A DNA stretch of 64,000 nucleotides from Pseudomonas mendocina. GTDB taxonomy: Bacteria > Pseudomonadota > Gammaproteobacteria > Pseudomonadales > Pseudomonadaceae. Positions 8,280 to 53,979 of the stretch are shown piece after piece. Each line of letters begins with the position of its first letter. Positions within the stretch are counted from its first letter, which is position 1. Location of the stretch: NCBI GenBank assembly GCA_037482215.1, contig CP148074.1, positions 2,418,001 through 2,482,000 on the forward strand. Direction: 5' to 3'. The notes beneath the pieces are model-generated. The model was not told the origin of the DNA. It made no database searches and saw only the letters and a program-made list of their open reading frames with translations. Made by a program: the position numbers and the translations under genes.

Positions 8280-8325
8280 TGGTAGGCACGATTGGACTCG
8301 AACCAACGACCCCCACCATGTCAAG
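8280..8325 (-). repeat. attL: displaced 3' half of tRNA-Val
   Basis: These 46 bp match 53903-53948 exactly and contain the tRNA-Val CCA end, T arm and the 3' side of the anticodon arm through the anticodon loop. They mark the left junction of the prophage. The match ends at 8326 (A against G), after which three more bases agree. Confidence 0.95.
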
Positions 8326-8358
8326 ATGGCGGCAAGGCGCACCTAACCAATTGAATCA
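8326..8358 (-). other. Degenerate 5' half of a tRNA on the phage side of attL
   Basis: On the minus strand the phage DNA next to attL still resembles a tRNA 5' half: ATTCAATTGGTTAG matches the D arm of tRNA-Val in most positions and CCATC can pair with GGTGG of the anticodon stem (one G-T pair). An insertion between D and anticodon arms and a non-pairing acceptor strand make it non-functional. Confidence 0.5.
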
Positions 8359-9650: not shown

Positions 9651-11597
9651 ATGAGCAATCCAAACATTAAATATCGCCCCGACATAGATGGGCTAAGGGC
9701 GCTTGCAGTAACCGCCGTTGTGATTTACCACGCTTTCCCATCACTTCTGCCTGGAGGATTCGTTGGGGTAGATGTGTTTTTTGTGATATCAGGATTTCTA
9801 ATAGGAACAATCCTCTTAAAAAGCATGGATCGAGGCTCATTCAGCTTCTCCGACTTTTATTCGCGCCGGATCCGAAGGATATTTCCAGCACTAATAACTG
9901 TGCTCTTGTTCTGTTTAATAGCTGGGAATTTCGTATTACTTGATGATGAATATCGACATCTAGGAAAGCAAATAGCTGCTGGGTCTGCATTTATTGCAAA
10001 CTTTTCTTTCTGGAGTGAAAGTGGTTATTTCGATACAGCCGCCGAATTAAAGCCACTTCTTCACTTATGGTCACTTGCAATCGAGGAGCAGTTCTATTTG
10101 CTTTGGCCTTTGCTGCTATGGGCAGGGCTTAGACTGCGCGCAAAGCCTTTATTTTTGACTGTATTGATCGCACTAATATCTTTCGCTATCAACTTAATAC
10201 AAATAGAAAGCAGCCCAATTGCTGCGTTTTTCCTGCTACCTAGTCGTGCATGGGAGCTTTTAGCTGGAAGCCTACTCGCGTGGATTGTTTTACAGAGCTG
10301 GTGGGCAACTGAAAAAAGCACATTACGAGCAAATATTGAGAATTTCGCCAGCATATCTGGGTTGATTCTAATCGCATGGTCTATGTTCTTTATTAAGGCG
10401 TCTGATGCATTTCCTGGCTGGTATGCTGTAGCCCCGGTACTTGGATCAGTGCTGCTGATCTCTGCGGGCCCCAAAGCGCCATTGAATAGAATCCTCTTTT
10501 CAAACAAGGCAGCAGTATTAATTGGCCTGATAAGTTTCCCTATCTATCTCTGGCACTGGCCACTACTTTCATTTGCTCGCATTATTGAAGGAGATATTCC
10601 TGCAGCCGAGATTCGTGCTACAGCCGCAGCACTTTCAATACTACTAGCTTGGCTTACATACAAGCTCATCGAAAAGCCATTGCGCAAAGCAGAGAGCAGT
10701 AGACCACTTGTAGCTGTACTTCTATCGACAATAGCTGTCATCGGCTCTATAGGTTTATATATTTTTATTAGTAACAACAACTCACACCAGGATGAATTAA
10801 AATCCGCCCTATCTGAGGCAAAAAGCAATTGCGATAAAGTTTTCCCTAAGTGGTCTAAGATAACGGACAATCCGTGCAGGATGCAAAGAAAGTCAGAAAA
10901 TACAGTTGCATTAATAGGAGACTCACATGCAGGTCACCTATATTTAGGCCTCAGCGAAATGATGAGCAATGACAATGGTGTAGCTGTTTTTCCTGCTAGT
11001 TGTGCAGCTCCATTTATAAACATAGCAACAGCACAAAAAGATACAAGAGCGCGAGAGGTGAGGAAGGATGCTTACAAGCTTATAAATAGCGCCTACGAAT
11101 ACATATTGAACGACTCAAAAATAAAGCTAGTGATACTTGCACACAGCCCAAGATGCTCATATAACGATGCAGCTGACAAAGAAAATCCGAGCGAAGTTAG
11201 CTACATTAAAGCACTTGAGAGTGGAATGCGGCGCACTCTTAAAAAACTAACAGAGTCCGGTAAAACTATCATTATAGTTTTCGATAACCCATATCTACCG
11301 CACGACCCTCAGCTTTGTGAGACAAGGCCATTCAGGCTGACGAATAAGCAAGATAAATGTTCATTCTTGAGATCAGATTTCGAGAAAATGATCCAATTCT
11401 CTGCTTATCGCTCACTCACAGAGAAGGTACTGAAGGACTTCAAAGAAGTAAGAACAGTTGATCTTTCAAGCGCTCTATGCGACCAAATGTCTTGTTTCAT
11501 AGCAAAGGACGGCACCGTTCTCTATAAAGACAGAGGACATCTAAACGATAGTGGCTCAAGATTTGTTGCACCTGCCATCATGAGGGCCGCTCAATAA
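9651..11597 (+). CDS. Membrane O-acetyltransferase with SGNH domain (serotype conversion)
   Basis: A 648-aa acyltransferase-3/SGNH fusion of the OafB type. The N-terminal part (to about residue 375) is a multi-span membrane domain opening with YRPDIDGLRALAV and containing FFVISGFLI and LWSLAIEEQFYLLWP. The C-terminal periplasmic part has the SGNH nucleophile block IGDSHAGHL (about 421-429) and the DRGHLN catalytic Asp/His near 630. Such enzymes O-acetylate O-antigen or other envelope sugars. It is the only plus-strand gene in the late region, has lower GC than its neighbours, and lies between tailspike and lysis genes, a classic site for a lysogenic-conversion gene. It should be expressed independently of the lytic programme. 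The exact sugar target is unknown. Confidence 0.9.
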   Translation: MSNPNIKYRPDIDGLRALAVTAVVIYHAFPSLLPGGFVGVDVFFVISGFLIGTILLKSMDRGSFSFSDFYSRRIRRIFPALITVLLFCLIAGNFVLLDDEYRHLGKQIAAGSAFIANFSFWSESGYFDTAAELKPLLHLWSLAIEEQFYLLWPLLLWAGLRLRAKPLFLTVLIALISFAINLIQIESSPIAAFFLLPSRAWELLAGSLLAWIVLQSWWATEKSTLRANIENFASISGLILIAWSMFFIKASDAFPGWYAVAPVLGSVLLISAGPKAPLNRILFSNKAAVLIGLISFPIYLWHWPLLSFARIIEGDIPAAEIRATAAALSILLAWLTYKLIEKPLRKAESSRPLVAVLLSTIAVIGSIGLYIFISNNNSHQDELKSALSEAKSNCDKVFPKWSKITDNPCRMQRKSENTVALIGDSHAGHLYLGLSEMMSNDNGVAVFPASCAAPFINIATAQKDTRAREVRKDAYKLINSAYEYILNDSKIKLVILAHSPRCSYNDAADKENPSEVSYIKALESGMRRTLKKLTESGKTIIIVFDNPYLPHDPQLCETRPFRLTNKQDKCSFLRSDFEKMIQFSAYRSLTEKVLKDFKEVRTVDLSSALCDQMSCFIAKDGTVLYKDRGHLNDSGSRFVAPAIMRAAQ

Positions 11598-37843: not shown

Positions 37844-38574
37844 CACGCAGCCCACTTCATCGATTCAGCAGCCCACAGCCCAGCAACGTACTGCACACCC
37901 TTCGGAGTGAACTTGGCCTGAGTGAATGCGTGAGAGTTGTGTTCGCAGGTTCCTGTTTTGACTTCAAATCGGCCAGCGTCTGTGTGCTGGGCGTATGGAG
38001 TCAGTACGCCACCCAGGTAGTACATAACGCCTTTATCCAGCAGCAGCTGGCGCAGGCGGCGCTCATTGGCGCTAAGCAGCTTGGCGAGCTGGCGGAAGCC
38101 GATAGAGCCAGTTGATTCAACGTAGCGCTCTACAAACTCAACCTTGGGCGCGGCCAGTTGAAGTGCGGCGGCCTGCTGCTCAATCAAATCGGCCTGATCA
38201 GCAGCAAGGCGCAGGGCTTGCGAGAGGGTTTGCGGTACTTGCGGGGCTTGTTGATCCTCAAGCTCCATCCAGCGCTTAATAATTGCGTAACGGACGGAAA
38301 CGCTGTACCCAGAAACCAGCGTCAAAGTAAGACTCTTTGGCAGCTTGAAATAAGAAGTGTATCCGCGAGCATCCTTTGTCTCTTCGACATGATCCAAATC
38401 TGGATCATCTTTGAGCGCCTCAAGCATGGTGCGAATATCGCGAATTACATGGGCGTGCGTTTTCTCGGTCAGCTCAGCGATTTCCAGCGACGACATACGC
38501 GCCACGTTTTCGCCCTGCATGATTTCGTGGCGCGTCACCTGTACACTGTTGCTGCCTATGGCCTGTGAATGCAT
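37843..38574 (-). CDS. Rha-type antirepressor with KilA-C/ANT domain
   Basis: A 243-aa regulator. The N-terminal Rha domain spans about 25-115 (VARMSSLEIAELTEKTHAHV, RDIRTML, TLTLVSGYSVSVRYAIIKRW). The C-terminal ANT domain (about 140-243) has SIGFRQLAKLLSANERRLRQ, LLLDKGVMYY and FTPKGVQYVAGLW. Such two-domain proteins act as antirepressors or early regulators. The ATG at 38574 has GGAG six nt upstream, so I prefer it to a slightly longer start. Confidence 0.88.
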   Translation of the reverse strand: MHSQAIGSNSVQVTRHEIMQGENVARMSSLEIAELTEKTHAHVIRDIRTMLEALKDDPDLDHVEETKDARGYTSYFKLPKSLTLTLVSGYSVSVRYAIIKRWMELEDQQAPQVPQTLSQALRLAADQADLIEQQAAALQLAAPKVEFVERYVESTGSIGFRQLAKLLSANERRLRQLLLDKGVMYYLGGVLTPYAQHTDAGRFEVKTGTCEHNSHAFTQAKFTPKGVQYVAGLWAAESMKWAA

Positions 38575-38597
38575 AATGTTCTCCACTTGTTGTAGGT

Positions 38598-38634
38598 AAA
38601 GCCCCGGTCGATTGGCGTTGCTCGGGGCTTTTTT
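38598..38634 (+). terminator. Hairpin between small cro-operon genes
   Basis: AAAGCCCCG/CGGGGCTTT stem (9 bp), 16-nt loop. The T6 run is on the plus strand; the minus strand, along which the cro operon runs, has only three T. It may block antisense transcription or act as a weak tR1-like site. Confidence 0.55.
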
Positions 38635-38643
38635 GTGCCTGTC

Positions 38644-38787
38644 TTATGCCCTTTTCAGGGCCTCTTTTTTGGGCTTAATCGGGACAACATCCCCCGCTTT
38701 ACCCCCCAGCTTTGTCTTCCCTTCTGCGATTTTCCGTGCAGCCTTCCCTGCTGCTTCGGTCACTACTTCTTGTTGCGTCTGCGTCAT
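38644..38787 (-). CDS. Small lysine-rich protein, unknown
   Basis: A 47-aa protein (MTQTQQEVVTEAAGKAARKI, then lysine-rich, ending LKRA). The ATG at 38787 has GGGGGA seven nt upstream. It fills an otherwise empty gap in the cro operon. The basic composition suggests nucleic acid contact; nothing else can be said. Confidence 0.5.
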   Translation of the reverse strand: MTQTQQEVVTEAAGKAARKIAEGKTKLGGKAGDVVPIKPKKEALKRA

Positions 38788-38817
38788 GAGCTGATCCCCC
38801 GACCAAAATGTTTCTCT

Positions 38818-39120
38818 TTAGGCCCTCAATTTCTCTGCAGACTGCTCAGTAATGGCAGTGCGGAGTTCGCGGATTGACTCGCGGAGAAGCTGGGAAACAA
38901 GTTCGGTCGGAGTGCAGTTGAAATGAGCAGCGATATCGTCAGCACCGCCCTTGCCGGTGATCTGCGCCAGAGCATCAAGCCCGGCCTCTACAAGCTCACG
39001 GGCAAGCACGGAATGCTGCATTCCGAGCTGTCGGGCTGCTTTACGCAGTTCGGTATCCCGGTCGTAACTCAGGCGAACACGGGTCAGCTGGTCGCGGCGG
39101 TCGTTAGGGTTGTCGTACAT
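38818..39120 (-). CDS. Small DNA-binding-like protein after cro
   Basis: A 100-aa protein (MYDNPNDRRDQLTRVRLSYD) with a possible ribbon-helix-helix (TRVRLSYDRDTELRKAARQL) and a helical C-terminus (TELVSQLLRESIRELRTAIT). AGGAGG lies five nt before the start. It has the position of a CII-like regulator but not its sequence. Role inferred from place. Confidence 0.65.
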   Translation of the reverse strand: MYDNPNDRRDQLTRVRLSYDRDTELRKAARQLGMQHSVLARELVEAGLDALAQITGKGGADDIAAHFNCTPTELVSQLLRESIRELRTAITEQSAEKLRA

Positions 39121-39129
39121 GGAAGCCTC

Positions 39130-39339
39130 CTATGCGACAGCCTGCGGAATGCTCGGGCGCAGGTCGCGCGCCTTCACTGCACCGCTGGTGATAATTTCGG
39201 CGCGCATTGCAACCTCGGCAGTGCATCCGTGCAGGCCTCGCACCCAGCCGCTAACTGTGCCCTGCTTTACGCCCAGCGCCTCGGCAGTCGCCTGCTGCGA
39301 CCCGAAGTGCGAGACAAGTTTTTCAAAGTGAGTGCTCAT
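39130..39339 (-). CDS. Cro-like repressor
   Basis: A 69-aa protein (MSTHFEKLVSHFGSQQATAE) with the YdaS/Cro-type helix-turn-helix SQQATAEALGVKQGTVSGWV. It is the first gene of the leftward early operon, opposite cI. I use ATG 39339, preceded by GGAGAATC; longer in-frame starts run into the operator. Confidence 0.9.
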   Translation of the reverse strand: MSTHFEKLVSHFGSQQATAEALGVKQGTVSGWVRGLHGCTAEVAMRAEIITSGAVKARDLRPSIPQAVA

Positions 39340-39354
39340 GATTCTCCGCCCATA

Positions 39355-39417
39355 TAAAGGGATGCCTTTATGGTATGCACAGGCATTCCTTTTTGCAACC
39401 ACAAAGGCTGCCCTTTA
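39355..39417. promoter_or_regulatory. CI/Cro operator cluster (three sites)
   Basis: Three related imperfect palindromes lie between cro and cI: O1 TAAAGGGATGCCTTTA (39355-39370), O2 ACAGGCATTCCTTTTT (39379-39394) and O3 CAAAGGCTGCCCTTTA (39402-39417). O1 covers the PR start, O2 the PR spacer, O3 the PRM spacer, the lambda-like arrangement. The consensus AAAGGNATGCCTTT recurs at 42.24 kb. Confidence 0.8.
39370..39398 (-). promoter_or_regulatory. PR-like promoter for cro operon
   Basis: Minus strand -35 TTGCAA (39398-39393), 17-bp spacer, -10 TACCAT (39375-39370), each matching consensus at 4 of 6. The start should fall inside O1, allowing repression. Confidence 0.6.
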
Positions 39418-39421
39418 AATT
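39393..39421 (+). promoter_or_regulatory. PRM-like promoter for cI, sharing its -35 with PR
   Basis: Plus strand -35 TTGCAA (39393-39398, the same self-complementary hexamer as PR), 17-bp spacer, -10 TAAATT (39416-39421). The start would fall at or next to the cI ATG (39429), giving a leaderless message as in lambda. Confidence 0.55.
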
Positions 39422-39428
39422 GGTAACC

Positions 39429-40067
39429 ATGGAACTTAAAGATCGCCTTAAGCAGGCAAGAAAAAGAGCGGGACTAACCCAGGCTGAGCTGGCGACAATG
39501 GCTGGCATCAAGCAGGCGTCCGTTTCTGAGATAGAGCGCGGCCTAACAAGGACTAGCGGACACCTTGTCCGACTGGCTCAAGTCTGCGGCGCAGACCCTA
39601 TATGGCTTGCAACTGGCGAGGGCGCGATTACCGACGCCATGAGCAACGTCGAGCCCGGCCCTGCAATCACTTCGCAGTTCAAAGCCGTGAAGATCGTTGG
39701 TACAGCCCAGATGGGCAGCGAGGGCTACTGGTCTGAACTTGATGAAGGCGAAGGCTTTGTGGATGTGCCGTCCAGTGATCCAGATGCTTACGCGCTACGC
39801 CTGCGCGGCGACAGCATGGCCCCTGCAATTCGCTCGGGATGGATTGCAGTCATTGAGCCGAGCCGGGATCTGGTGCCGGGGGAGTACGTCATGATCCGCC
39901 TGCACGATGGAGAAAGCATGCTCAAGGAGCTGCTGTACTCAAACGACCATGAGGTCAGTGTCATGTCGATCAATGACGCCTATGGTCGACGGACAATTCC
40001 GGTTGAGCAGATAGAGGCCATTCACTATGTTGGTGCGATTGTGCCACCTAGCAAACTTAGGGTTTAA
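39429..40067 (+). CDS. CI-type prophage repressor (S24 family)
   Basis: A 212-aa repressor. N-terminal HTH at about 5-60 (LKQARKRAGLTQAELATMAG, IKQASVSEIERG), linker, then an S24/LexA-like domain with nucleophile Ser129 in RGDSMAPAIRSGW and Lys166 in ESMLKELLY. The Ser-Lys pair suggests RecA-stimulated self-cleavage, although no canonical Ala-Gly or Cys-Gly bond is obvious (the region reads GTAQMGSEGYW). ATG 39429 is chosen because the HTH begins right after it; no strong ribosome site is present, in line with a leaderless transcript. Confidence 0.92.
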   Translation: MELKDRLKQARKRAGLTQAELATMAGIKQASVSEIERGLTRTSGHLVRLAQVCGADPIWLATGEGAITDAMSNVEPGPAITSQFKAVKIVGTAQMGSEGYWSELDEGEGFVDVPSSDPDAYALRLRGDSMAPAIRSGWIAVIEPSRDLVPGEYVMIRLHDGESMLKELLYSNDHEVSVMSINDAYGRRTIPVEQIEAIHYVGAIVPPSKLRV

Positions 40068-40185
40068 TCGTGCTAGCAGATCAACGGACGCAAGTCGGCA
40101 ATGATCTTAAGAGTAACGCCTCGTTTGGACGTGTATTCCACTAACTACAAGACGACTAATGCTTCGAGCCTAGGGAATCACGCTA
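40068..40185. other. Gap between cI and the HipA-like gene
   Basis: 118 nt without a terminator or clear promoter, so cI transcription probably continues into the HipA-like/DUF3037 pair. Confidence 0.4.
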
Positions 40186-40924
40186 GTGCCTGAAATTGTT
40201 ACTGCCACCGAGATTATTAGACAAAGCCATCAGGGCTATTCGATTAAGCCCTTTATTATAAGAGCCGAGGACGGGCTAACTTACTTTGTTAAGGGCCTTA
40301 ATAAAGCTGGGGGCCCTGCCCTAATCTCAGAAGCTCTAGGGGCTGAACTAGGTATGCTAATTGGGCTGCCCATCCCTGAGTGGAGGCTCATGCACATCCC
40401 TGAAGAGCTGATCGAATTCAGCACAATTCCAGATATTCAAGATCTTAGGGGTGGACTTGCATTTGCATCACAGTCTGTCGATAACGCGACTGACGTCACT
40501 CTAGCTAGCATCCAAAGAATTCCCGTTGACTTGAAAGCTACTCCTTTTCGACTGGTGGGTTAGAAATGAGGATCGAGTACTTGGGGATAAAGGTGGCAAT
40601 GTAAACCTCATCCTTGACTCAAGAGGCAACCTCTGCGTTATTGACCACAACCTAGCCTTTGACATGGCCTTCAACAGCCATGATTTTTTGAATGGACACG
40701 TTTTCCGTGAGGTGAGACCTCATTTTCGAGATCTTGTAATCCGTCAGGATTTCATGAGAATGCTTGACTCGGCGCTTGAGAATTGGGGTAGGATTGTCAG
40801 CTTTTTACCCGAAGACTGGCTATATCGAGACAGTGATCATATTGATCTGACTCAGCCTACACTAGCAGCTAGGCGCGCCATGCTTGACCTGTTTACGGAA
40901 GAGCAGTTTTGGAGTGAGTTATGA
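40186..40924 (+). pseudogene. HipA-like (HipA_2-type) kinase gene split by one frameshift
   Basis: Two reading frames together make one HipA-like kinase of about 246 residues. The first (GTG 40186 to a stop at 40561) encodes the ATP-binding lobe: FIIRAEDGLTYFVKGLNKAG, SEALGAELGMLIGLPIPEWR. The second frame, open from about 40540 to the stop at 40924, encodes the catalytic part FDWWVRNEDR, NVNLIL and CVIDHNLAFD, the Asp/Asn and IDH-type motifs of the family, then a helical end. The shift lies near 40530-40545 (TTGAAAGCTACTCC). It could be inactivating, a sequencing error or programmed. The last codons overlap the DUF3037 start as ATGA, so the two genes were built as a coupled pair. It lies directly downstream of cI and should be expressed in the lysogen. 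Confidence 0.75.
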
Positions 40925-41757
40925 AACTCGTCTGTAACTATTCCATCTTGCGGTTCCTGCCTTACCCTGAAACAGGCGAATTCGTCAATATTGGCGTCGT
41001 TTTGATTGCTAATAACGGGGATTTTCGGTTCAAAATCGAGAAGAAGCGCCAACGCGTTACAAGTTTTTTCCCAACCCTTGATGCCCAAATATTCGTCAGG
41101 GCTCGGCGCGAAATTGAGGCAGAACTTGATAGGCTCAGCTCTTACTGTGTCTCCAATCGAACCAACCTATCTATTCTAATTTCTACGTTCCAGCATCTGA
41201 TCCATCCTCGTGAAACCATGATGAGATTCAGCGATGCTGGCACACTGCGAATGGATAATGCTGATCAAGCCTTGACTAAGCTTTTCGATCACTACGTGAA
41301 TCACAGCTTCGCCACCAAGGAGTACCAAGAGGCCGTCCTTGAGAGACAGCTCGGGAAGCTGCTGAGCGCTAGAAATTTGAAACAGCGATACAGCGAAGGA
41401 AGACTTGGCTCAAACGATTATCAGGTCAAATTTCCATTCGTTATGATGAATAATGGCGTGGCTGTCCAAGCCCTGAAGCCAATACACCTTGGGCATGATG
41501 AGTCAGGCAAAATAATTGATCACGGCGACGCCTGGATATCCAAATTACGACGCCTTAAGTCTGCTGACCGACTTGCCCAAGACACACTGTTTATCGCAGC
41601 CCCACCAGAAAGTGGTAAACCTAAACTGCTGAAGGCTTATGAAGAAATTTGCACAGAGCTGGAGTCCTACCCTAGCGTAAGGGTAGTGAGTACAGCCTTA
41701 GGTAACGACGACAGAATTATTGATCAGATCAAGAAGAATTCCCCTTCCTTCCATTGA
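40921..41757 (+). CDS. DUF3037 protein, partner of HipA-like kinase
   Basis: A 278-aa soluble protein. The N-terminal about 130 residues match DUF3037 (KLVCNYSILRFLPYPETGEF, VNIGVVLIANNGDF, SFFPTLDAQIFVRARREIEA). The rest contains LLSARNLKQRYSEGRLGSND and a C-terminal DRIIDQIKKNS. HipA_2-type kinases and DUF3037 are frequently adjacent; function of the pair is, to my knowledge, undefined. Overlap of 4 nt with the kinase frame implies translational coupling. A good terminator follows, closing a cI-kinase-DUF3037 unit. Confidence 0.8.
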   Translation: MKLVCNYSILRFLPYPETGEFVNIGVVLIANNGDFRFKIEKKRQRVTSFFPTLDAQIFVRARREIEAELDRLSSYCVSNRTNLSILISTFQHLIHPRETMMRFSDAGTLRMDNADQALTKLFDHYVNHSFATKEYQEAVLERQLGKLLSARNLKQRYSEGRLGSNDYQVKFPFVMMNNGVAVQALKPIHLGHDESGKIIDHGDAWISKLRRLKSADRLAQDTLFIAAPPESGKPKLLKAYEEICTELESYPSVRVVSTALGNDDRIIDQIKKNSPSFH

Positions 41758-41765
41758 CCTATTTC

Positions 41766-41789
41766 AAGCCCGCCTAGTGCGGGCTTTTT
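41766..41789 (+). terminator. Terminator after the DUF3037 gene
   Basis: AAGCCCGC/GCGGGCTT stem of 8 bp, 5-nt loop, T5 run on the plus strand, 9 nt after the stop. Ends the immunity-side operon. Confidence 0.9.
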
Positions 41790-41873
41790 ATACCTGCCTC
41801 ACAGCTTGCCCACCTTTACACTTTACATTCCTAATTTTAGTTTTCTTCCTATAGCGACATCACGCAACTACCT

Positions 41874-41893
41874 TACTGTATATAAAAACAGTA
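41874..41893 (+). promoter_or_regulatory. LexA (SOS) box
   Basis: TACTGTATATAAAAACAGTA is an almost perfect LexA site: CTG and CAG separated by 10 bp with flanking TA on both sides. It stands before a small open frame at 42020 and the PL-like promoter, so it probably makes a small unit SOS-inducible. Confidence 0.85.
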
Positions 41894-42019
41894 AAAGCAA
41901 GAAGACACCCATCATGCCGTACTCAGCGCGCCCGTAACTCATCAGCGCCAAATCTCCTCATACCATCGCCTGTTGCGCCGCGTTAATCACTTGCTGACCA
42001 CGCCACGCGCCCGCCGCGA

Positions 42020-42178
42020 ATGCCAGGCGAACCTCTCTCCCTCCCCGATGACCTCCCTGAAGACTGGGAGCGCCTGCTTGAAGAAATCGAGCAGGACGAA
42101 TGCGCAAAGATGATCAAGCGCTCGGATGGCAGCGTTTGGTGTGCTGGAAGGCTCAAGGCTCACTTAGACAGTCTTTAA
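42020..42178 (+). CDS. Small acidic protein downstream of an SOS box
   Basis: A 52-aa protein beginning MPGEPLSLPDDLPEDWERLL and ending in DGSVWCAGRLKAHLDSL. No strong ribosome site is seen at this ATG, and about 130 nt separate it from the SOS box, with a 7-codon ATG frame at 41914 in between. The protein-like composition and the LexA box support a real SOS gene. Function unknown. Confidence 0.45.
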   Translation: MPGEPLSLPDDLPEDWERLLEEIEQDECAKMIKRSDGSVWCAGRLKAHLDSL

Positions 42179-42218
42179 AATAAAGCGGAACCGCTAAAGA
42201 GAATCCTCGAATGAAAAA

Positions 42219-42259
42219 AAAAGGTAAACCTGTTGACCTTAAATAAAGGTATGCCTATA
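42219..42259. promoter_or_regulatory. OL-like operators
   Basis: Two sites match the immunity operators: TAAAGGTATGCCTATA (42244-42259; 13 of 16 as O1) and the weaker AAAAGGTAAACCTGTT (42219-42234). They overlap the spacer and -35 side of the promoter below, so CI should silence the rightward early operon. Confidence 0.75.
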
Positions 42260-42261
42260 TT
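42233..42261 (+). promoter_or_regulatory. PL-like early promoter
   Basis: -35 TTGACC (42233-42238), 17-bp spacer, -10 TATATT (42256-42261), the best promoter match in the early region. It fires toward recT, integrase and the small genes and carries operator sequence in its spacer. Confidence 0.8.
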
Positions 42262-42303
42262 TGACTCCAACACGAAGCCAAACAGCTTCAGGCCGAAAGG
42301 CCA

Positions 42304-42316
42304 CGCTCTTTAACAA
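42304..42316 (+). promoter_or_regulatory. boxA antitermination element
   Basis: CGCTCTTTAACAA, about 35-40 nt after the predicted start site, matches the ribosomal-operon and nut boxA. A 6-bp stem-loop (42330-42335 with 42345-42350, GCTGGC/GCCAGC) follows. It probably recruits NusB/NusE for processive antitermination through the long leader. Confidence 0.7.
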
Positions 42317-42520
42317 ACTAGACCGCCGAGCTGGCCGATGCATAGCCAGCGGACGTACCGCGCAACGGTACGCAGTGCACGACCTACATGTCGTCACTGG
42401 GCATAAAACCTCATTCGGAGGGCGCAGCTGGATAGGCTGCGTAGTGGCAAGTACGTGTACGACCTAGGCGGCAAGACTCCGGGCACACGAAAAACCACTG
42501 ACGGGAAAGCGACCGTTGGC
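42317..42520 (+). other. Structured early leader, no gene seen
   Basis: About 200 nt after boxA with several short inverted repeats (for example GGCGCAGCTGGATAGGCTGC) and no convincing plus-strand gene. Together with the next 720 nt it forms an unusually long leader before the first good plus-strand gene at 43245. Confidence 0.4.
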
Positions 42521-43045
42521 CTATGCAAGAGAAAGAGAATACCGGCCTGCCTTGAGCGGGCCGGATGCTCTCAAGTCGCCTTTATTAGGGGACTTGGAAG
42601 TATTAGCGCACTTTCCGGTACCTGGCGCGCCACCCGGAACGAGAATTACGCTTGAGTATTCGGTTGGTTTATCGGAGCGTGGACCCGGCACCAATTCGCG
42701 GAGGCGCAAGTAGCAAGTCTTGCAAAGATGGCCGTAATCGTATTCTTCTGCTTCAGATAGAACAGCCCTGCACTCCGCGCACTTAGCTGCCAACCTCACC
42801 GGATTATTGAGAGCCTCAATAGCCTGCGCCCTTATCTCTCTCAGTCTTCGACGCTCAGCCGCTGAAGGGCGATTTGCCAAACGCTCCGCTCTGCGCCTTT
42901 CACGCTCTTCGTTTTTTGCAGCGAGCGCTTTTCTACGCTCTTCGCGCTCGCACTTCTTGTTCACCGCCTGAAATGCCCGGCGCAACTCTCTAGTTAGTCT
43001 GTCAATGACGACATCTGGACCGTCCGGGGTTGCATTGTCGCTCAC
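42521..43045 (-). CDS. Charged protein with zinc motif, antisense to the early leader
   Basis: A 174-aa frame on the minus strand. GTG 43045 has AGGAG six nt upstream. The N-terminal two-thirds is a basic coiled coil (REERRKALAAKNEERERRRA), followed by CAECRAVLSEAEEYDYGHLC with KTC, a CxxC-x14-CxxC zinc finger. The last about 50 residues are low in structure and may be spurious beyond the zinc finger. It would be transcribed against PL. Real-looking but unidentified. Confidence 0.5.
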   Translation of the reverse strand: MSDNATPDGPDVVIDRLTRELRRAFQAVNKKCEREERRKALAAKNEERERRRAERLANRPSAAERRRLREIRAQAIEALNNPVRLAAKCAECRAVLSEAEEYDYGHLCKTCYLRLRELVPGPRSDKPTEYSSVILVPGGAPGTGKCANTSKSPNKGDLRASGPLKAGRYSLSLA

Positions 43046-43244
43046 TCTCAACTCCTGTCAGATGAAAGAACTCAAGAGTCGCTAATTGAGGAAGGCAACG
43101 CAAGATCAGCTGATGGCAAGTAATCAGCAACTGACAGCCAGATGATCCACGCGCCAGCGAGCCAGTAGCCCTGGCGCGAGCAATGCCCGTTTTCCTCGAT
43201 GCCCTTGGTGACAGGGGTATCTGGGAAGACAACAAGAGGAGAAA

Positions 43245-43454
43245 ATGAGTGTTATTGATATTGATTTCGAGGCTGGAGGTATTTCCCTTGAGCCTCTTAG
43301 TGGTAACTGGATTCGTGTTGAGGCGAAAGAAGCTGATGTTAAGCAGATTCTCAATTCGTTCGATCTCACAATGATCGTAGAGCACTACGGCGCTAGCGAT
43401 CTTCTTGAAGAGATAGGCGAAGCGCAAGCAAAAGAACATTTCGAGATCGAATAA
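43245..43454 (+). CDS. Small acidic protein, first early gene after PL
   Basis: A 69-aa acidic protein (MSVIDIDFEAGGISLEPLSG, ending KEHFEIE). The ATG has GAGGAG about five nt upstream. First convincing plus-strand gene of the operon. No family recognised; small acidic early phage proteins are often host-takeover or anti-defence factors, but nothing here shows which. Confidence 0.75.
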   Translation: MSVIDIDFEAGGISLEPLSGNWIRVEAKEADVKQILNSFDLTMIVEHYGASDLLEEIGEAQAKEHFEIE

Positions 43455-43464
43455 CCCTTCACTT

Positions 43465-43487
43465 CTGCCCATTCACTGAGTGGGCAG
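43465..43487. terminator. Hairpin after the small acidic gene
   Basis: CTGCCCA/TGGGCAG stem (7 bp) with a 9-nt loop 10 nt after the stop codon, no T-run. Could stabilise the message end. Confidence 0.4.
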
Positions 43488-43502
43488 CGGGAAGACAAGC
43501 CA

Positions 43503-43533
43503 AGTGGTTTGTTCCATTTTGGAACATACCACT
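43503..43533. repeat. 13-bp inverted repeat
   Basis: AGTGGTTTGTTCC (43503-43515) and GGAACATACCACT (43521-43533) pair with one mismatch around an ATTTT loop. There is no T-run. It could be an operator for a dimeric regulator or an RNA hairpin. Confidence 0.7.
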
Positions 43534-44084
43534 CAGCGCAACAAGATCCCGCAAACACGACACGGGATGCCGCCTCTGATAACAGGAGTATGACGGGGTT
43601 CAGTGGGGTTCAGCGCCCTGGCAATAAGCTGCCAATGCCCTCGGTGAGGGTGTATTGGGGATGGCTTTAGTGGAGTACAGCGGATAAAACCAACGGACTA
43701 ACCATTAGAGCCGTCCACCAATGCAGTGAGCAAGGCTGAATCAAGACAGTTCGGAGCATTAGCGACCACACGGGCCACTGACCGCATAGAACGGCGCGGG
43801 ATTTGTTCAGCTCCGGCCACTGCATTAAGCGCCGACGGAGTTCGGGTGAGGACTGGCCTAACCAGTCTGCCCTATCAACTATCAAGCATTCCTTGACAGT
43901 TGCCCTGCATGACCAATTTCCCGGCATCAGGAAAATGGTTTCGCACGTATTCGCAACATCCTCTCCCGGTTCGCCGGGGTTCTTTCTCACATAGATCGCA
44001 CCGGCAGGCGTCAGGCTGGCTATTCGCCCGGCTTGGTCACCGGGTCTGGCGCCTGACCAGTGCGATTTCACCGAGGAATCAATC
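43534..44084. other. 550 nt without a convincing gene
   Basis: No plus-strand frame of useful length with a ribosome site. A 26-codon frame at 43590 (AGGAGT two nt before ATG) is possible. GGGGTTCAGT is followed directly by a second GGGGTTCAG. A long minus-strand frame crossing this region has no ribosome site and overlaps the next real gene. A non-coding RNA is possible. Confidence 0.4.
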
Positions 44085-44399
44085 ATGGAAATTCGACAGA
44101 TCATAGATTCGCTGAGTGAAGCAATTGATGCAGGTGATGCCGATGTGATTGAGCGATACGCCGAGCACTGCGCAGAAGGCATGAATGAGCTGGGCGAGCT
44201 TCTCTGCATTGCAATCATCGAAATGGATCGCCCGCAGTGGCTGGCAGTTATGTCCGTGACCTCGCAGAAAACGCCGAAGCTGGCCGATGCCCTTGAGGCA
44301 ATTGAGCGCCATATCGACCGAGAGCGCCATGCCTTCATCGGAAAGCGCGCAAATCTCGGACGAAGCAGAAGAGGAAGCCGCAGTCCGGTCCGAATTTAA
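44085..44399 (+). CDS. Small helical early protein, unknown
   Basis: A 104-aa protein (MEIRQIIDSLSEAIDAGDAD, HCAEGMNELGELLCIAIIEM) with an acidic helical N-terminus and a basic end (KRANLGRSRRGSRSP). Preceded by CCGAGGAATCAATC. No family recognised. Confidence 0.7.
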   Translation: MEIRQIIDSLSEAIDAGDADVIERYAEHCAEGMNELGELLCIAIIEMDRPQWLAVMSVTSQKTPKLADALEAIERHIDRERHAFIGKRANLGRSRRGSRSPVRI

Positions 44400-44420
44400 T
44401 TCTGGGCTACGGAGGGTGTC

Positions 44421-44705
44421 ATGAGCACATCCGACTGGCAGAAAGCCAAGGCTGCAGAGCTTGTTGAGTACTACGTCGAGCAGATAAAGCGCTCTGAGTT
44501 TCCAGAGCCAAATCTGTGCCAAGGCATGATCGAAATGGCCTACGCCACCGCCCTTCTTGATGATGAGCAGTACGGCTACTGGACCAGGCTCACAGAATTG
44601 GCGGTTCAAGAGCGGCGCGCCGAACTTCGTAAGATCAGGGGTGCGCGCATTCGTACCAAGAAACCTCAAGCGAATAAGAACAATGCAATTCGGAGGGCGT
44701 CATGA
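44421..44705 (+). CDS. Small early protein, unknown
   Basis: A 94-aa protein (MSTSDWQKAKAAELVEYYVE, MIEMAYATALLDDEQYGYWT), acidic first, strongly basic at the end (KKPQANKNNAIRRAS). GGAGGGTGTC precedes the start. Its stop overlaps the next start by 4 nt. No family recognised. Confidence 0.7.
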   Translation: MSTSDWQKAKAAELVEYYVEQIKRSEFPEPNLCQGMIEMAYATALLDDEQYGYWTRLTELAVQERRAELRKIRGARIRTKKPQANKNNAIRRAS

Positions 44706-44833
44706 AAGCCATCTACCCAACCATCGAAGCCGCCATTCAAGCCCTGCAACAGCGGGGCTTTTTATTGGTGGCTGAGCTTCCGAAGGCAATCAAGATTGAG
44801 CGCCGCAATGGGCGCTGTGTGGTGACTGTATGA
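44702..44833 (+). CDS. Micro-protein, unknown
   Basis: A 43-aa protein (MKAIYPTIEAAIQALQQRGF, LLVAELPKAIKI) preceded by CGGAGGGCGTC; overlaps both neighbours by 4 nt (ATGA), which supports translation. Confidence 0.6.
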   Translation: MKAIYPTIEAAIQALQQRGFLLVAELPKAIKIERRNGRCVVTV

Positions 44834-44934
44834 CCACAAATCAGCGCGCCCGCCGCCACGCAATCTGGCTCAACGGCTTTCTGATGATCGCCCTCTTCCT
44901 GATCGTAACGATCATCGGCCCAAGCCTGGGCTAA
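44830..44934 (+). CDS. Single-span membrane micro-protein
   Basis: A 34-aa protein with a basic start (MTTNQRARRHAIW) and one hydrophobic helix (GFLMIALFLIVTIIGPSL). It overlaps the preceding gene by 4 nt. Similar to the small membrane proteins encoded in early operons of many temperate phages; role unknown. Confidence 0.55.
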   Translation: MTTNQRARRHAIWLNGFLMIALFLIVTIIGPSLG

Positions 44935-45089
44935 TCAATCGCAAAGCTCATGTAGGTGCATTAAATGGATGAAAGCCTTATTCCAAAGGACCTGCTCATT
45001 TAATCGCAAATGCAGAGCTAACACCTTCCCTATCAATCTCTACTGCTGCGTCATGCGCGGCATGCTTCTGCGCGCATATCGAGGTAGCC

Positions 45090-46007
45090 ATGAGCAACGC
45101 AATAGCAACCATAACAAATGACATTTACGGAACTCGCGATTCGTTCGCTGCCGTCCTCACAGATCAGAGTATTAACTTTGACCGCGAGGCAGGGTTTGCG
45201 ATTCAGGCCATCAGCGCAAACGACTACATCACTAAGGTTGCATCCAATAACCGGCAGTCAGTAGTCAATGCAATTGCAAATATTGCAGCAATCGGCATCA
45301 GCCTGAACCCAGCGACTAAGCAAGCGTACCTGGTGCCGAGAGACGGCAAGATTTGTCTTGATATCAGCTATATGGGGCTGATGGATCTCGCCATCGCATC
45401 TGGCTCTATTCGCTGGGCTAAGGCAGAGCTTGTATATGCGACTGACTCCTTTGAGCTGAACGGATACGACAACCCTCCTGCCCATAAGTACAACCCATTC
45501 AGCCAGGATCGCGGCGAAATTGTTGGTGTTTACGTGGTCGCAAAGACTGCGGATGGCGACTATTTAACCGACACTATGACGCTTGCGGAGGTGTACGCAA
45601 TCCGTGACCGCTCAAGCGCATGGAAGGCCTGGGTTAAGGACAAGAAGAAATGCCCGTGGGTCACGGACGAGGGCGAAATGATCAAAAAGACCATGGTCAA
45701 GCGTGCGTCCAAATACTGGCCCATGACGCCGCGTCTTGAGCAGGCGATTCATCACCTCAATACAGATGCTGGAGAAGGAATTGATCTGACCGGGAAGCAG
45801 GCTGCAAATCCTGACTTTACCGCCTCATGGGTCGAAAAGGTCAATGCATCCGAGTCGGCAGAGGTTCTTCAGATGGTCTGGAAGCAGGCTGTTGAATCTG
45901 CCAGGGGAGCAGGAGATAAGCAGGCCTATGAACTGATAAAGGCTGCTGTTCTTGAGAGGCAGGCATACCTGAAAAATAACGCACCAATTGAAGGGGTGGC
46001 TCAATGA
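45090..46007 (+). CDS. recT: RecT single-strand annealing protein
   Basis: A 305-aa RecT-family recombinase ([56 protein letters not shown]). It coats single-stranded DNA and promotes annealing during phage recombination and circularisation. Its stop overlaps the exonuclease start by 4 nt, the usual RecT/exonuclease pairing. Confidence 0.93.
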
Positions 46008-52658: not shown

Positions 52659-53801
52659 ATGAGTCCTCCGCGCCCCCGCACCAGCCGCAATCGGAACCTG
52701 CCGGAGAACCTGTACCCAAACGGGAAGTACTGGCAGTACCGCAATCCGATCACCGGCAAAAAGATCAGTATCAACAAGCCGCTAGCGGAGGCAGTCAAGC
52801 TGGCGCGGCTGGCAAATGCCAAGCTGGCACCGCTGATGGCTGACGATGGCGAGCTGCTGCAGCTGCTGACCGGCGAGCAAGCACCAAAGGTAAAGCTGTT
52901 GCTTGAGCGTTTCGCGGAAGAATACTTGCCGGGCCGCAAGCTGGCCGAGTCAACATTGAAGGAAACCCGGATCAAGTTAGAGCGGTACCGGGCTGACCTG
53001 GGCGAACGGATGATTGGCCAAATTGATGTTCTGGCCATGGCCGAATACCTCGACCAGTTCACAAATAACGCATACACCAAGCATCGGGCGCTGTGGGTGC
53101 AGATTTTTGCATTCGCCGTGGCAAAGGGCATGGCTGAGCGGAATTGCGCAGAGCTGACCCTGCAGAAGAAAGAGGCGGATAAAGTTCGCCAGCGGCACAC
53201 CATTGAGGGCGTGCAGAAGATTCTTGATGCTGGCACCACTCCGGCATGGCTAAAGCGTGCCATCCGCCTGGCTCTGCTGAGCCTGCAGCGGCGTGAGGAT
53301 CTTGTTACCTGGGAGCGGACAGCCGTCGATATGAAGAGGAACGTGATCAGGGTCAGCCCCGGTAAGACTGAGAACTACGACACCCCTATTCACTTGGAAA
53401 TCGAAATGGGGCCGGACCTGCGGGCTGTTGTGCAGGAATGCCTGTCAGAACCCATCGCCAGCCCTTTCCTTCTCTGCTACCGCCCGAAGGCGCGCAAGCG
53501 GGAACAGATCGAGGCCAAGGCCCACTGGTCAGCCATCACTGACGACTACCTGACCAAGGAGTTCAAGAAAGCCCGCGACCTCGCTGGGGCGTATGACCAT
53601 ATCGAAAACCCGAAAGCCCGACCAACGGTGCATGAATTGCGCGCACTTGGAGCTTGGCTATACGAGCAGCAGGGGTTCGCGACTGAGTATGTGCAGGTAC
53701 TGATGGGGCACGCAACGCCAGAAATGACCGCGTACTACCAAGACGGTCACGAGCAGAAGGAGGTGATTTACCAGCAGGTGAAGGCGGGTTTAAAACTTTG
53801 A
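52659..53801 (+). CDS. int: Tyrosine-family prophage integrase
   Basis: A 380-aa recombinase. N-terminal arm-binding domain (NRNLPENLYPNGKYWQYRNP), core-binding SAM-like domain at about 80-165, and a catalytic domain with Arg about 210 (LLSLQRREDLVTW), His-x-x-Arg about 324-327 (VHELRALGAWLYEQQG), the GH dipeptide and nucleophile Tyr about 358 (MGHATPEMTAYYQD). It carries out integration at and excision from tRNA-Val. It reads toward attR, about 100 bp away, with tandem arm-like repeats between. Confidence 0.95.
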   Translation: MSPPRPRTSRNRNLPENLYPNGKYWQYRNPITGKKISINKPLAEAVKLARLANAKLAPLMADDGELLQLLTGEQAPKVKLLLERFAEEYLPGRKLAESTLKETRIKLERYRADLGERMIGQIDVLAMAEYLDQFTNNAYTKHRALWVQIFAFAVAKGMAERNCAELTLQKKEADKVRQRHTIEGVQKILDAGTTPAWLKRAIRLALLSLQRREDLVTWERTAVDMKRNVIRVSPGKTENYDTPIHLEIEMGPDLRAVVQECLSEPIASPFLLCYRPKARKREQIEAKAHWSAITDDYLTKEFKKARDLAGAYDHIENPKARPTVHELRALGAWLYEQQGFATEYVQVLMGHATPEMTAYYQDGHEQKEVIYQQVKAGLKL

Positions 53802-53902: not shown

Positions 53903-53948
53903 TGGTAGGCACGATTGGACTCGAACCAACGACCCCCACCATGTCAAG
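53903..53948 (-). repeat. attR: tRNA-Val 3' half
   Basis: Exact 46-bp copy of attL (8280-8325), from the CCA end into the anticodon stem. Marks the right junction of the 45.6-kb prophage. Confidence 0.95.
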
Positions 53949-53979
53949 GTGGTGCTCTAACCAACTGAGCTACGTGCCT
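53903..53979 (-). tRNA. tRNA-Val(GAC), rebuilt at attR
   Basis: Full cloverleaf on the minus strand: acceptor AGGCACG pairing with CGTGCCT, D arm with AGTTGGTTAG, anticodon stem CCACC/GGTGG around loop TTGACAT (anticodon GAC), T arm and an encoded CCA. The 5' half is host DNA and the 3' half (53903-53948) is the attR core brought by the phage, so the tRNA stays functional after integration. Confidence 0.97.

What the first reader, a model, noticed from the sequence alone, without database searches (positions are those of the whole stretch)
40186..41757. HipA-like kinase plus DUF3037 pair at the lambda rexAB position
Seen: right after cI, in the same direction and with no terminator between, lie a HipA-like kinase and a DUF3037 gene that overlap by ATGA and end in a strong terminator. 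Known: rexAB, a phage-exclusion pair, sits at this place in lambda, and many prophages put defence or exclusion genes here because PRM is on in lysogens. HipA-family kinases phosphorylate translation factors and arrest growth. Inferred: this pair is an abortive-infection or persistence module, with DUF3037 as partner, substrate or control. I know of no defined function for the HipA_2/DUF3037 pair.
Basis: partly seen in the sequence, partly recalled or inferred. Interest (0 to 1): 0.85.

Follow-up and report, generated by a model that had tools for sequence, protein, structure and literature searches.

The report
Broken HipA-DUF3037 defence pair in prophage
A virus lying dormant in a bacterial chromosome carries a known kind of two-gene anti-virus system beside its master repressor, but in this copy the kinase gene is split, so probably only the partner protein is made whole.

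Summary
The pair is real and lies just downstream of cI in a prophage (8280-53952, tRNA-Val). But the "HipA-like kinase" is not one gene: 125 codons are in one frame and the rest, with the catalytic and metal-binding residues, in another. The 29 close relatives checked all keep it in one frame of 247-249 codons; the window copy is 5 nt shorter than most. DUF3037 (40921-41757) is intact.

The pair has a defined function in print: PADLOC PDC-M66, also DS-6 or HipAD, an anti-phage toxin-antitoxin system with the kinase as toxin and DUF3037 as neutraliser (passages). Phage PhiR5_1 is annotated cI-HipA-HipD at the same place. Of 77 upstream ORFs scanned in viral contigs, 65 match Peptidase_S24, so the rex-like position is usual.

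Verdict: a known system at a known place, here with a disrupted kinase. Kinase-driven exclusion is unlikely; DUF3037 may remain as an orphan antitoxin.

Noticed beside it: the next operon's leader holds an rrn-type boxA and a ~225-nt RNA with strong covariation, with no Rfam match there.

The parts
39414..40067 (+). cI-type repressor (HTH + Peptidase_S24); first gene of the presumed operon
   Evidence: Pfam HTH_3 and Peptidase_S24; PHROG transcriptional repressor
40186..40563 (+). hipA 5' piece, 125 codons, GTG start, HipA_2 positions 2-109
40553..40924 (+). hipA 3' piece in another frame, HipA_2 positions 116-239, holds the kinase signature residues; first usual start codon only at 40664
40921..41757 (+). 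DUF3037 gene (HipD-like neutraliser), 278 aa, intact, ATGA overlap with the hipA end
   Evidence: PF11236 E 1.9e-22, PDC-M66B E 2.1e-22, phrog_5137
41766..41786 (+). terminator hairpin (8-bp stem) followed by a T-run
   Evidence: fold -14 kcal/mol, z -2.95
8280..8329 (.). left attachment repeat of the prophage
   Evidence: 46 bp exact, 50 bp at 98% to 53903-53952
53903..53952 (.). right attachment repeat, within tRNA-Val
52659..53801 (+). integrase
   Evidence: PHROG integrase E 3.4e-34

Best explanation
This is the cI-linked HipAD (PDC-M66, DS-6) locus of a ~45.7-kb prophage, with its kinase (toxin) gene disrupted by a net 5-nt loss and its DUF3037 (antitoxin) gene intact. In intact relatives the kinase is held in check by DUF3037, and infection presumably frees it to block a host function and abort the infection; target and trigger are unknown. 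The genes lie on the repressor's side with no terminator in between, so they are probably transcribed with cI in the lysogen. Shown here: position, split kinase, intact partner, one-frame relatives. From papers: the kinase is needed for defence and loss of DUF3037 is toxic. Inferred: the window copy makes a dead N-terminal fragment and a whole DUF3037, gives no kinase-driven exclusion, and at most leaves DUF3037 as an orphan antitoxin.
For: Two frames covering complementary halves of PF20613. One-frame hipA with ATGA overlap in 29 of 29 close relatives (start codons chosen nearest to 744 nt) and in 80 of 80 viral loci found through DUF3037 (L134; 27 plus 53 from the capped best 80 of 116). Window stretch 739 nt against 744-750 nt. 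Invariant N129, D131, R132, N140, N142, D155, H156, N157 of the kinase fall in the out-of-frame piece. cI-adjacent place in 65 of 77 scanned loci and in PhiR5_1. Defence and toxin-antitoxin roles: PMC13092281 and PMC12548924 (passages). Complete-looking prophage. Lower G+C (46-48%) than cI (55.5%).
Against: No reads and no independent sequence of the same allele: the nearest DUF3037 relative found is 74% identical. The split kinase still keeps 74 of 77 invariant columns, so the break is young at most and could be an error. The window protein lacks the DUF1829 domain that the paper names for DS-6B, so equal function with DS-6B is not certain. Expression from the repressor promoter is inferred only.
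Confidence: 0.8

Rival explanations
1. Assembly or sequencing error: the real gene is intact and the lysogen carries a working HipAD system.
For: No read data; the two pieces are well conserved (74 of 77 invariant columns); no other copy of this allele was found.
Against: The net difference to most relatives is 5 nt, unlike the common one-base homopolymer error (general knowledge). The genome is one contig, 100% complete, and the ten large prophage genes scanned are open.
Confidence: 0.07
2. Orphan antitoxin kept for its own sake: the prophage lost its kinase but keeps DUF3037 to neutralise HipAD kinases of other elements (anti-defence or anti-addiction).
For: DUF3037 intact with 106 of 110 invariant columns. 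In chromosomes 14 of 77 testable DUF3037 loci lack a complete hipA, while all 18 strong, stop-free HipA_2 genes in the order and class searches have an adjacent DUF3037.
Against: hipA is about as well conserved as DUF3037 here (3 of 77 against 4 of 110 columns lost), so retention may only mean that the break is young. The own genome has no second DUF3037 and no HipA_2 match other than the two pieces. Ten weak HipA_2 matches over the cut-off have no DUF3037 match in the same genome, so the pairing is not universal.
Confidence: 0.12
3. Ribosomal slippage near the junction yields some full-length kinase, so the system is still active at a low level.
For: The 3' piece is open and conserved; the frame change equals a +1 shift, and a UUU-C run of the kind recalled from known +1 sites lies at the junction (sequence; the motif is recalled, not tested).
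Against: No close relative is split (29 of 29 in one frame), so there is no conserved slippage signal; the product would also differ in length from the 247-249 residues of relatives.
Confidence: 0.03

Closest known systems
HipAD / DS-6 (E. coli; PMC13092281, passages; Brenes and Laub 2025 cited there, not held) and Escherichia phage PhiR5_1 HipA-HipD
   Same: HipA-type kinase followed by an overlapping DUF3037 gene, directly after cI in a prophage
   Different: Kinase split here; DUF3037 proteins only 30.7% identical to PhiR5_1's; no DUF1829 match
PADLOC candidate PDC-M66 and the Retron-Sda1 HipA/DUF3037 pair (PMC12548924, passages)
   Same: Same two families; window DUF3037 matches PDC-M66B at E 2.1e-22
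   Different: The N piece matches PDC-M66A only weakly (E 0.0082; the 3' piece was not run there); no retron gene noted, but none was searched for
Lambda RexAB and P. putida RexABpp (PMC12894663, passages)
   Same: Exclusion genes downstream of a cI-type repressor in a prophage
   Different: Different protein families: Pfam gives HipA_2 and DUF3037 only
HipBA type II toxin-antitoxin
   Same: HipA-type kinase as toxin
   Different: No HipB-like HTH partner; the partner is DUF3037 and follows the kinase

Membership tests
HipAD / PDC-M66 / DS-6 | HipA_2 kinase encoded in one open frame | tested here: not met
   Two frames
HipAD / PDC-M66 / DS-6 | DUF3037 partner directly downstream | tested here: met
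   PF11236 E 1.9e-22, ATGA overlap
HipAD / PDC-M66 / DS-6 | Matches to both PADLOC models PDC-M66A and PDC-M66B | tested here: inconclusive
   M66B E 2.1e-22; M66A E 0.0082 for the N piece; 3' piece not run
HipAD / PDC-M66 / DS-6 | DUF1829 domain on the partner, as the paper names for DS-6B | tested here: not met
   Only DUF3037 at E up to 0.01
HipAD / PDC-M66 / DS-6 | Kinase-dependent phage defence; DUF3037 neutralises the kinase | not testable with these tools
   Needs plaque and growth assays
HipBA toxin-antitoxin | HipB-like HTH antitoxin partner | tested here: not met
   No HTH family on the DUF3037 protein in Pfam at E up to 0.01; the upstream HTH gene is the S24 phage repressor
RexAB | Position downstream of cI on the same strand | tested here: met
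RexAB | RexA and RexB protein families | tested here: not met
   Pfam matches are HipA_2 and DUF3037 only

The most novel reading that the evidence does not exclude
A prophage that has lost its own HipA-type kinase keeps the DUF3037 partner in its repressor operon as a stand-alone immunity protein that disarms HipAD kinases of resident or rival elements: an orphan antitoxin turned anti-defence gene at the rex position. DUF3037 genes without a complete hipA in chromosomes (14 of 77 testable loci) would be further cases.
Probability: 0.12. Interest if true: 0.55.

Novelty: new member of a known kind. Interest (0 to 1): 0.22.

Why it matters
It shows that a defence system tested in E. coli sits at the same cI-linked site in many viral contigs, and gives a natural copy in which only the neutraliser is whole. 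If orphan DUF3037 proteins disarm HipA-type kinases, that would be a simple route to counter-defence; if not, this is ordinary loss of a costly toxin. It also warns that profile matches alone would have counted this copy as an active defence system.

Tried and rejected
Phage records: the two closest by DNA that I fetched (L002, L003) show no HipA or DUF3037 relative of the window; by protein, 3 phage and 21 plasmid records carry a DUF3037 relative. E. coli genomes: no DNA match to the DUF3037 gene. Solved structures: no HipA_2 relative at E up to 1 and one chance-like DUF3037 match at E 0.036. Whether the kinase erodes faster than DUF3037 gave no signal: mean residual -0.62 sd for the window, -1.35 to +0.76 for intact copies. 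The 'kinase lost, partner kept' asymmetry is suggestive only. In the order and class searches 25 genomes have a DUF3037 match; 4 lack an intact HipA_2 beside it (G000, G480, G556, G653), G854 has both genes in fragments and G882 is below the cut-off. All 18 strong HipA_2 genes without a stop have an adjacent DUF3037, but 10 weak HipA_2 matches over the cut-off (8, 2) have no DUF3037 match in their genome; I take these for other kinases and left them out of the 18. In viral contigs neither gene was broken in loci not cut by a contig end; these lists are capped (best 80 of 116 and best 80 of 167) and share contigs. The chromosomal set is the best 80 of 299; L119 (no DUF3037 ORF) and L072 and L112 (contig edge) were dropped, leaving 77. 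In the upstream census 77 of 80 viral loci were scanned, taking the longest same-strand ORF of 80 aa or more within 900 nt; L136, L158 and L160 were left out, and near-identical contigs were not merged. Two of ten paper searches were not used.

Full report
What is there. The window is from an unnamed 4.76-Mb single-contig genome, most likely Pseudomonas: all 19 phage records with DNA similarity to the region are Pseudomonas phages. The finding lies inside a prophage bounded by a direct repeat (46 bp exact, 50 bp at 98%) at 8280-8329 and 53903-53952, the latter in tRNA-Val. Among the genes scanned are an integrase, terminase, portal, tape measure, tail protein, RecT, exonuclease, SSB and an O-like replication protein, so it looks complete; lysis genes were not checked.

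The pair. A cI-type repressor (39414-40067) is followed after 118 nt by HipA_2 sequence and then a DUF3037 gene. No terminator-like site or run of four T lies in the gap, and a hairpin terminator follows DUF3037. The G+C of the pair, 46-48%, is below that of cI (55.5%) and the window (53.9%), as is common for cargo genes. I infer that the pair is transcribed with cI; there are no expression data.

The kinase is split. The frame starting at 40186 stops after 125 codons and covers PF20613 positions 2-109. Positions 116-239 are in another frame that ends at 40924. In the 29 close relatives checked (27 viral loci and two genomes, 20 of the 29 non-redundant at 95%) hipA is one frame of 247-249 codons with an ATG start, chosen as the start nearest to 744 nt, and a 4-nt overlap with DUF3037. 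The 80 viral loci found through DUF3037 all have a one-frame hipA of 242 codons or more (L134). The window stretch is 739 nt against 744 nt in most relatives, a net loss of 5 nt, and it uses GTG where relatives have ATG. The invariant residues N129, D131, R132, N140, N142, D155, H156 and N157 (numbering of L010) are present but out of frame, and no ATG, GTG or TTG in that frame comes before 40664. The 125-codon product therefore lacks the residues that make a HipA-type kinase work (general knowledge of the fold). The break looks young: 74 of 77 invariant columns are kept, against 106 of 110 in DUF3037.

What it is. PADLOC lists the pair as candidate system PDC-M66, and the window DUF3037 matches PDC-M66B at E 2.1e-22. 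Papers, read as passages only, report that the pair defends. DS-6, renamed HipAD, loses defence when a predicted catalytic residue of the kinase is mutated (PMC13092281; outline and abstract). In the Retron-Sda1 operon deletion of HipA removes defence and deletion of DUF3037 is toxic, while the retron parts are dispensable against the phage tested (PMC12548924). The prophage paper by Brenes and Laub is not held; I know it here only from a reference list and as cited in passages. Escherichia phage PhiR5_1 is annotated Cro, cI, HipA toxin, HipD antitoxin, Kil, Gam, the same arrangement as here, with 30.7% identity in the DUF3037 protein.

Distribution. DUF3037 occurs in 14 of 390 genomes of the order and 12 of 369 of the class, one of the 12 below the curated cut-off. 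A relative of the window protein occurs in 10 of 298 genomes of the genus, the own genome included. It is a rare accessory gene. Of 77 upstream ORFs scanned in viral contigs (80 loci, 3 left out), 65 match Peptidase_S24 and 58 HTH_3, so the cI-adjacent place is usual. Of 73 further loci found through the kinase, 72 carry DUF3037, and the other (L230) is cut by the contig end. In 77 testable chromosomal loci, 14 lack a complete hipA by my profile beside an intact DUF3037. This fits a toxin that can be lost and a neutraliser that is harmless alone, but the reverse sample is small: 18 of 18 strong HipA_2 genes have DUF3037 beside them, while 10 weak matches over the cut-off do not.

How it most likely works. 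In intact copies the kinase is the toxin and DUF3037 holds it in check; infection frees the kinase and growth stops. Target and trigger are unknown. In this copy only DUF3037 is likely to be made whole, so kinase-driven exclusion is not expected. The chief doubts are an assembly error (a 5-nt difference is not the usual kind) and ribosomal slippage (no close relative is split). The most novel reading left open is an orphan antitoxin that protects against HipAD of other elements.

Beside the finding. After the terminator a promoter-like site (42233-42261; one search found 2 such sites where 3.3 are expected by chance) leads into an exact rrn-type boxA word at 42305 (with two mismatches allowed there is 1 match against 4.8 expected, so the word alone proves nothing) and a stretch that folds well (z -4.9, 0 of 100 shuffles). 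By position this is the start of what would be lambda's PL operon. A 22-nt core occurs in 51 viral contigs. In 47 of 51 boxA starts exactly 22 nt before the core, and a cI-like ORF lies upstream on the same strand within 4 kb in 28 of 51, or 27 of the 39 with at least 1500 nt upstream (recounted from its rows). On 25 sequences (window, L002 and 23 of 49 usable regions kept at under 90% identity) 18 of 37 pairs show changes on both sides; 0 of 500 shuffles reach this and slid structures give 1 to 3. On one measure, further pair types, 21 of 500 shuffles reach the observed value. Rfam has no match to this stretch at E up to 1; its one weak match in 38000-46000 lies elsewhere, at 41715-41792, below the gathering score. 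Two literature searches, seen as listings, did not show such an RNA. A nut- or put-like antitermination leader is my guess. It deserves its own study more than the pair does.

Noticed in passing
window 42292-42541 (+), promoter-like site 42233-42261: Leader of the operon after the pair: exact rrn-type boxA at 42305 and a ~225-nt structured RNA. Core in 51 viral contigs with boxA 22 nt before it in 47; 18 of 37 pairs with changes on both sides in 25 sequences, 0 of 500 shuffles. No Rfam match there. Candidate antitermination leader RNA of Pseudomonas temperate phages.
   Followed up: partly
window 9651-11597 (+): Acyltransferase (AT3) fused to an SGNH domain next to the left att site: by its domains a possible surface-sugar acetylase, a usual kind of lysogenic conversion gene (recalled).
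   Followed up: no
L061, L093, L115, L263: Further hipA genes with an in-frame stop (L061, L263) or in two frames (L093, L115) beside an intact DUF3037 in chromosomes.
   Followed up: partly
L009-L030, L122-L133, L148-L154, L166 (several loci), + strand downstream of DUF3037: A boxA-like word is found on the same strand downstream of the pair in many viral loci, followed in several by other well-folding leaders that do not align with the window's RNA.
   Followed up: partly
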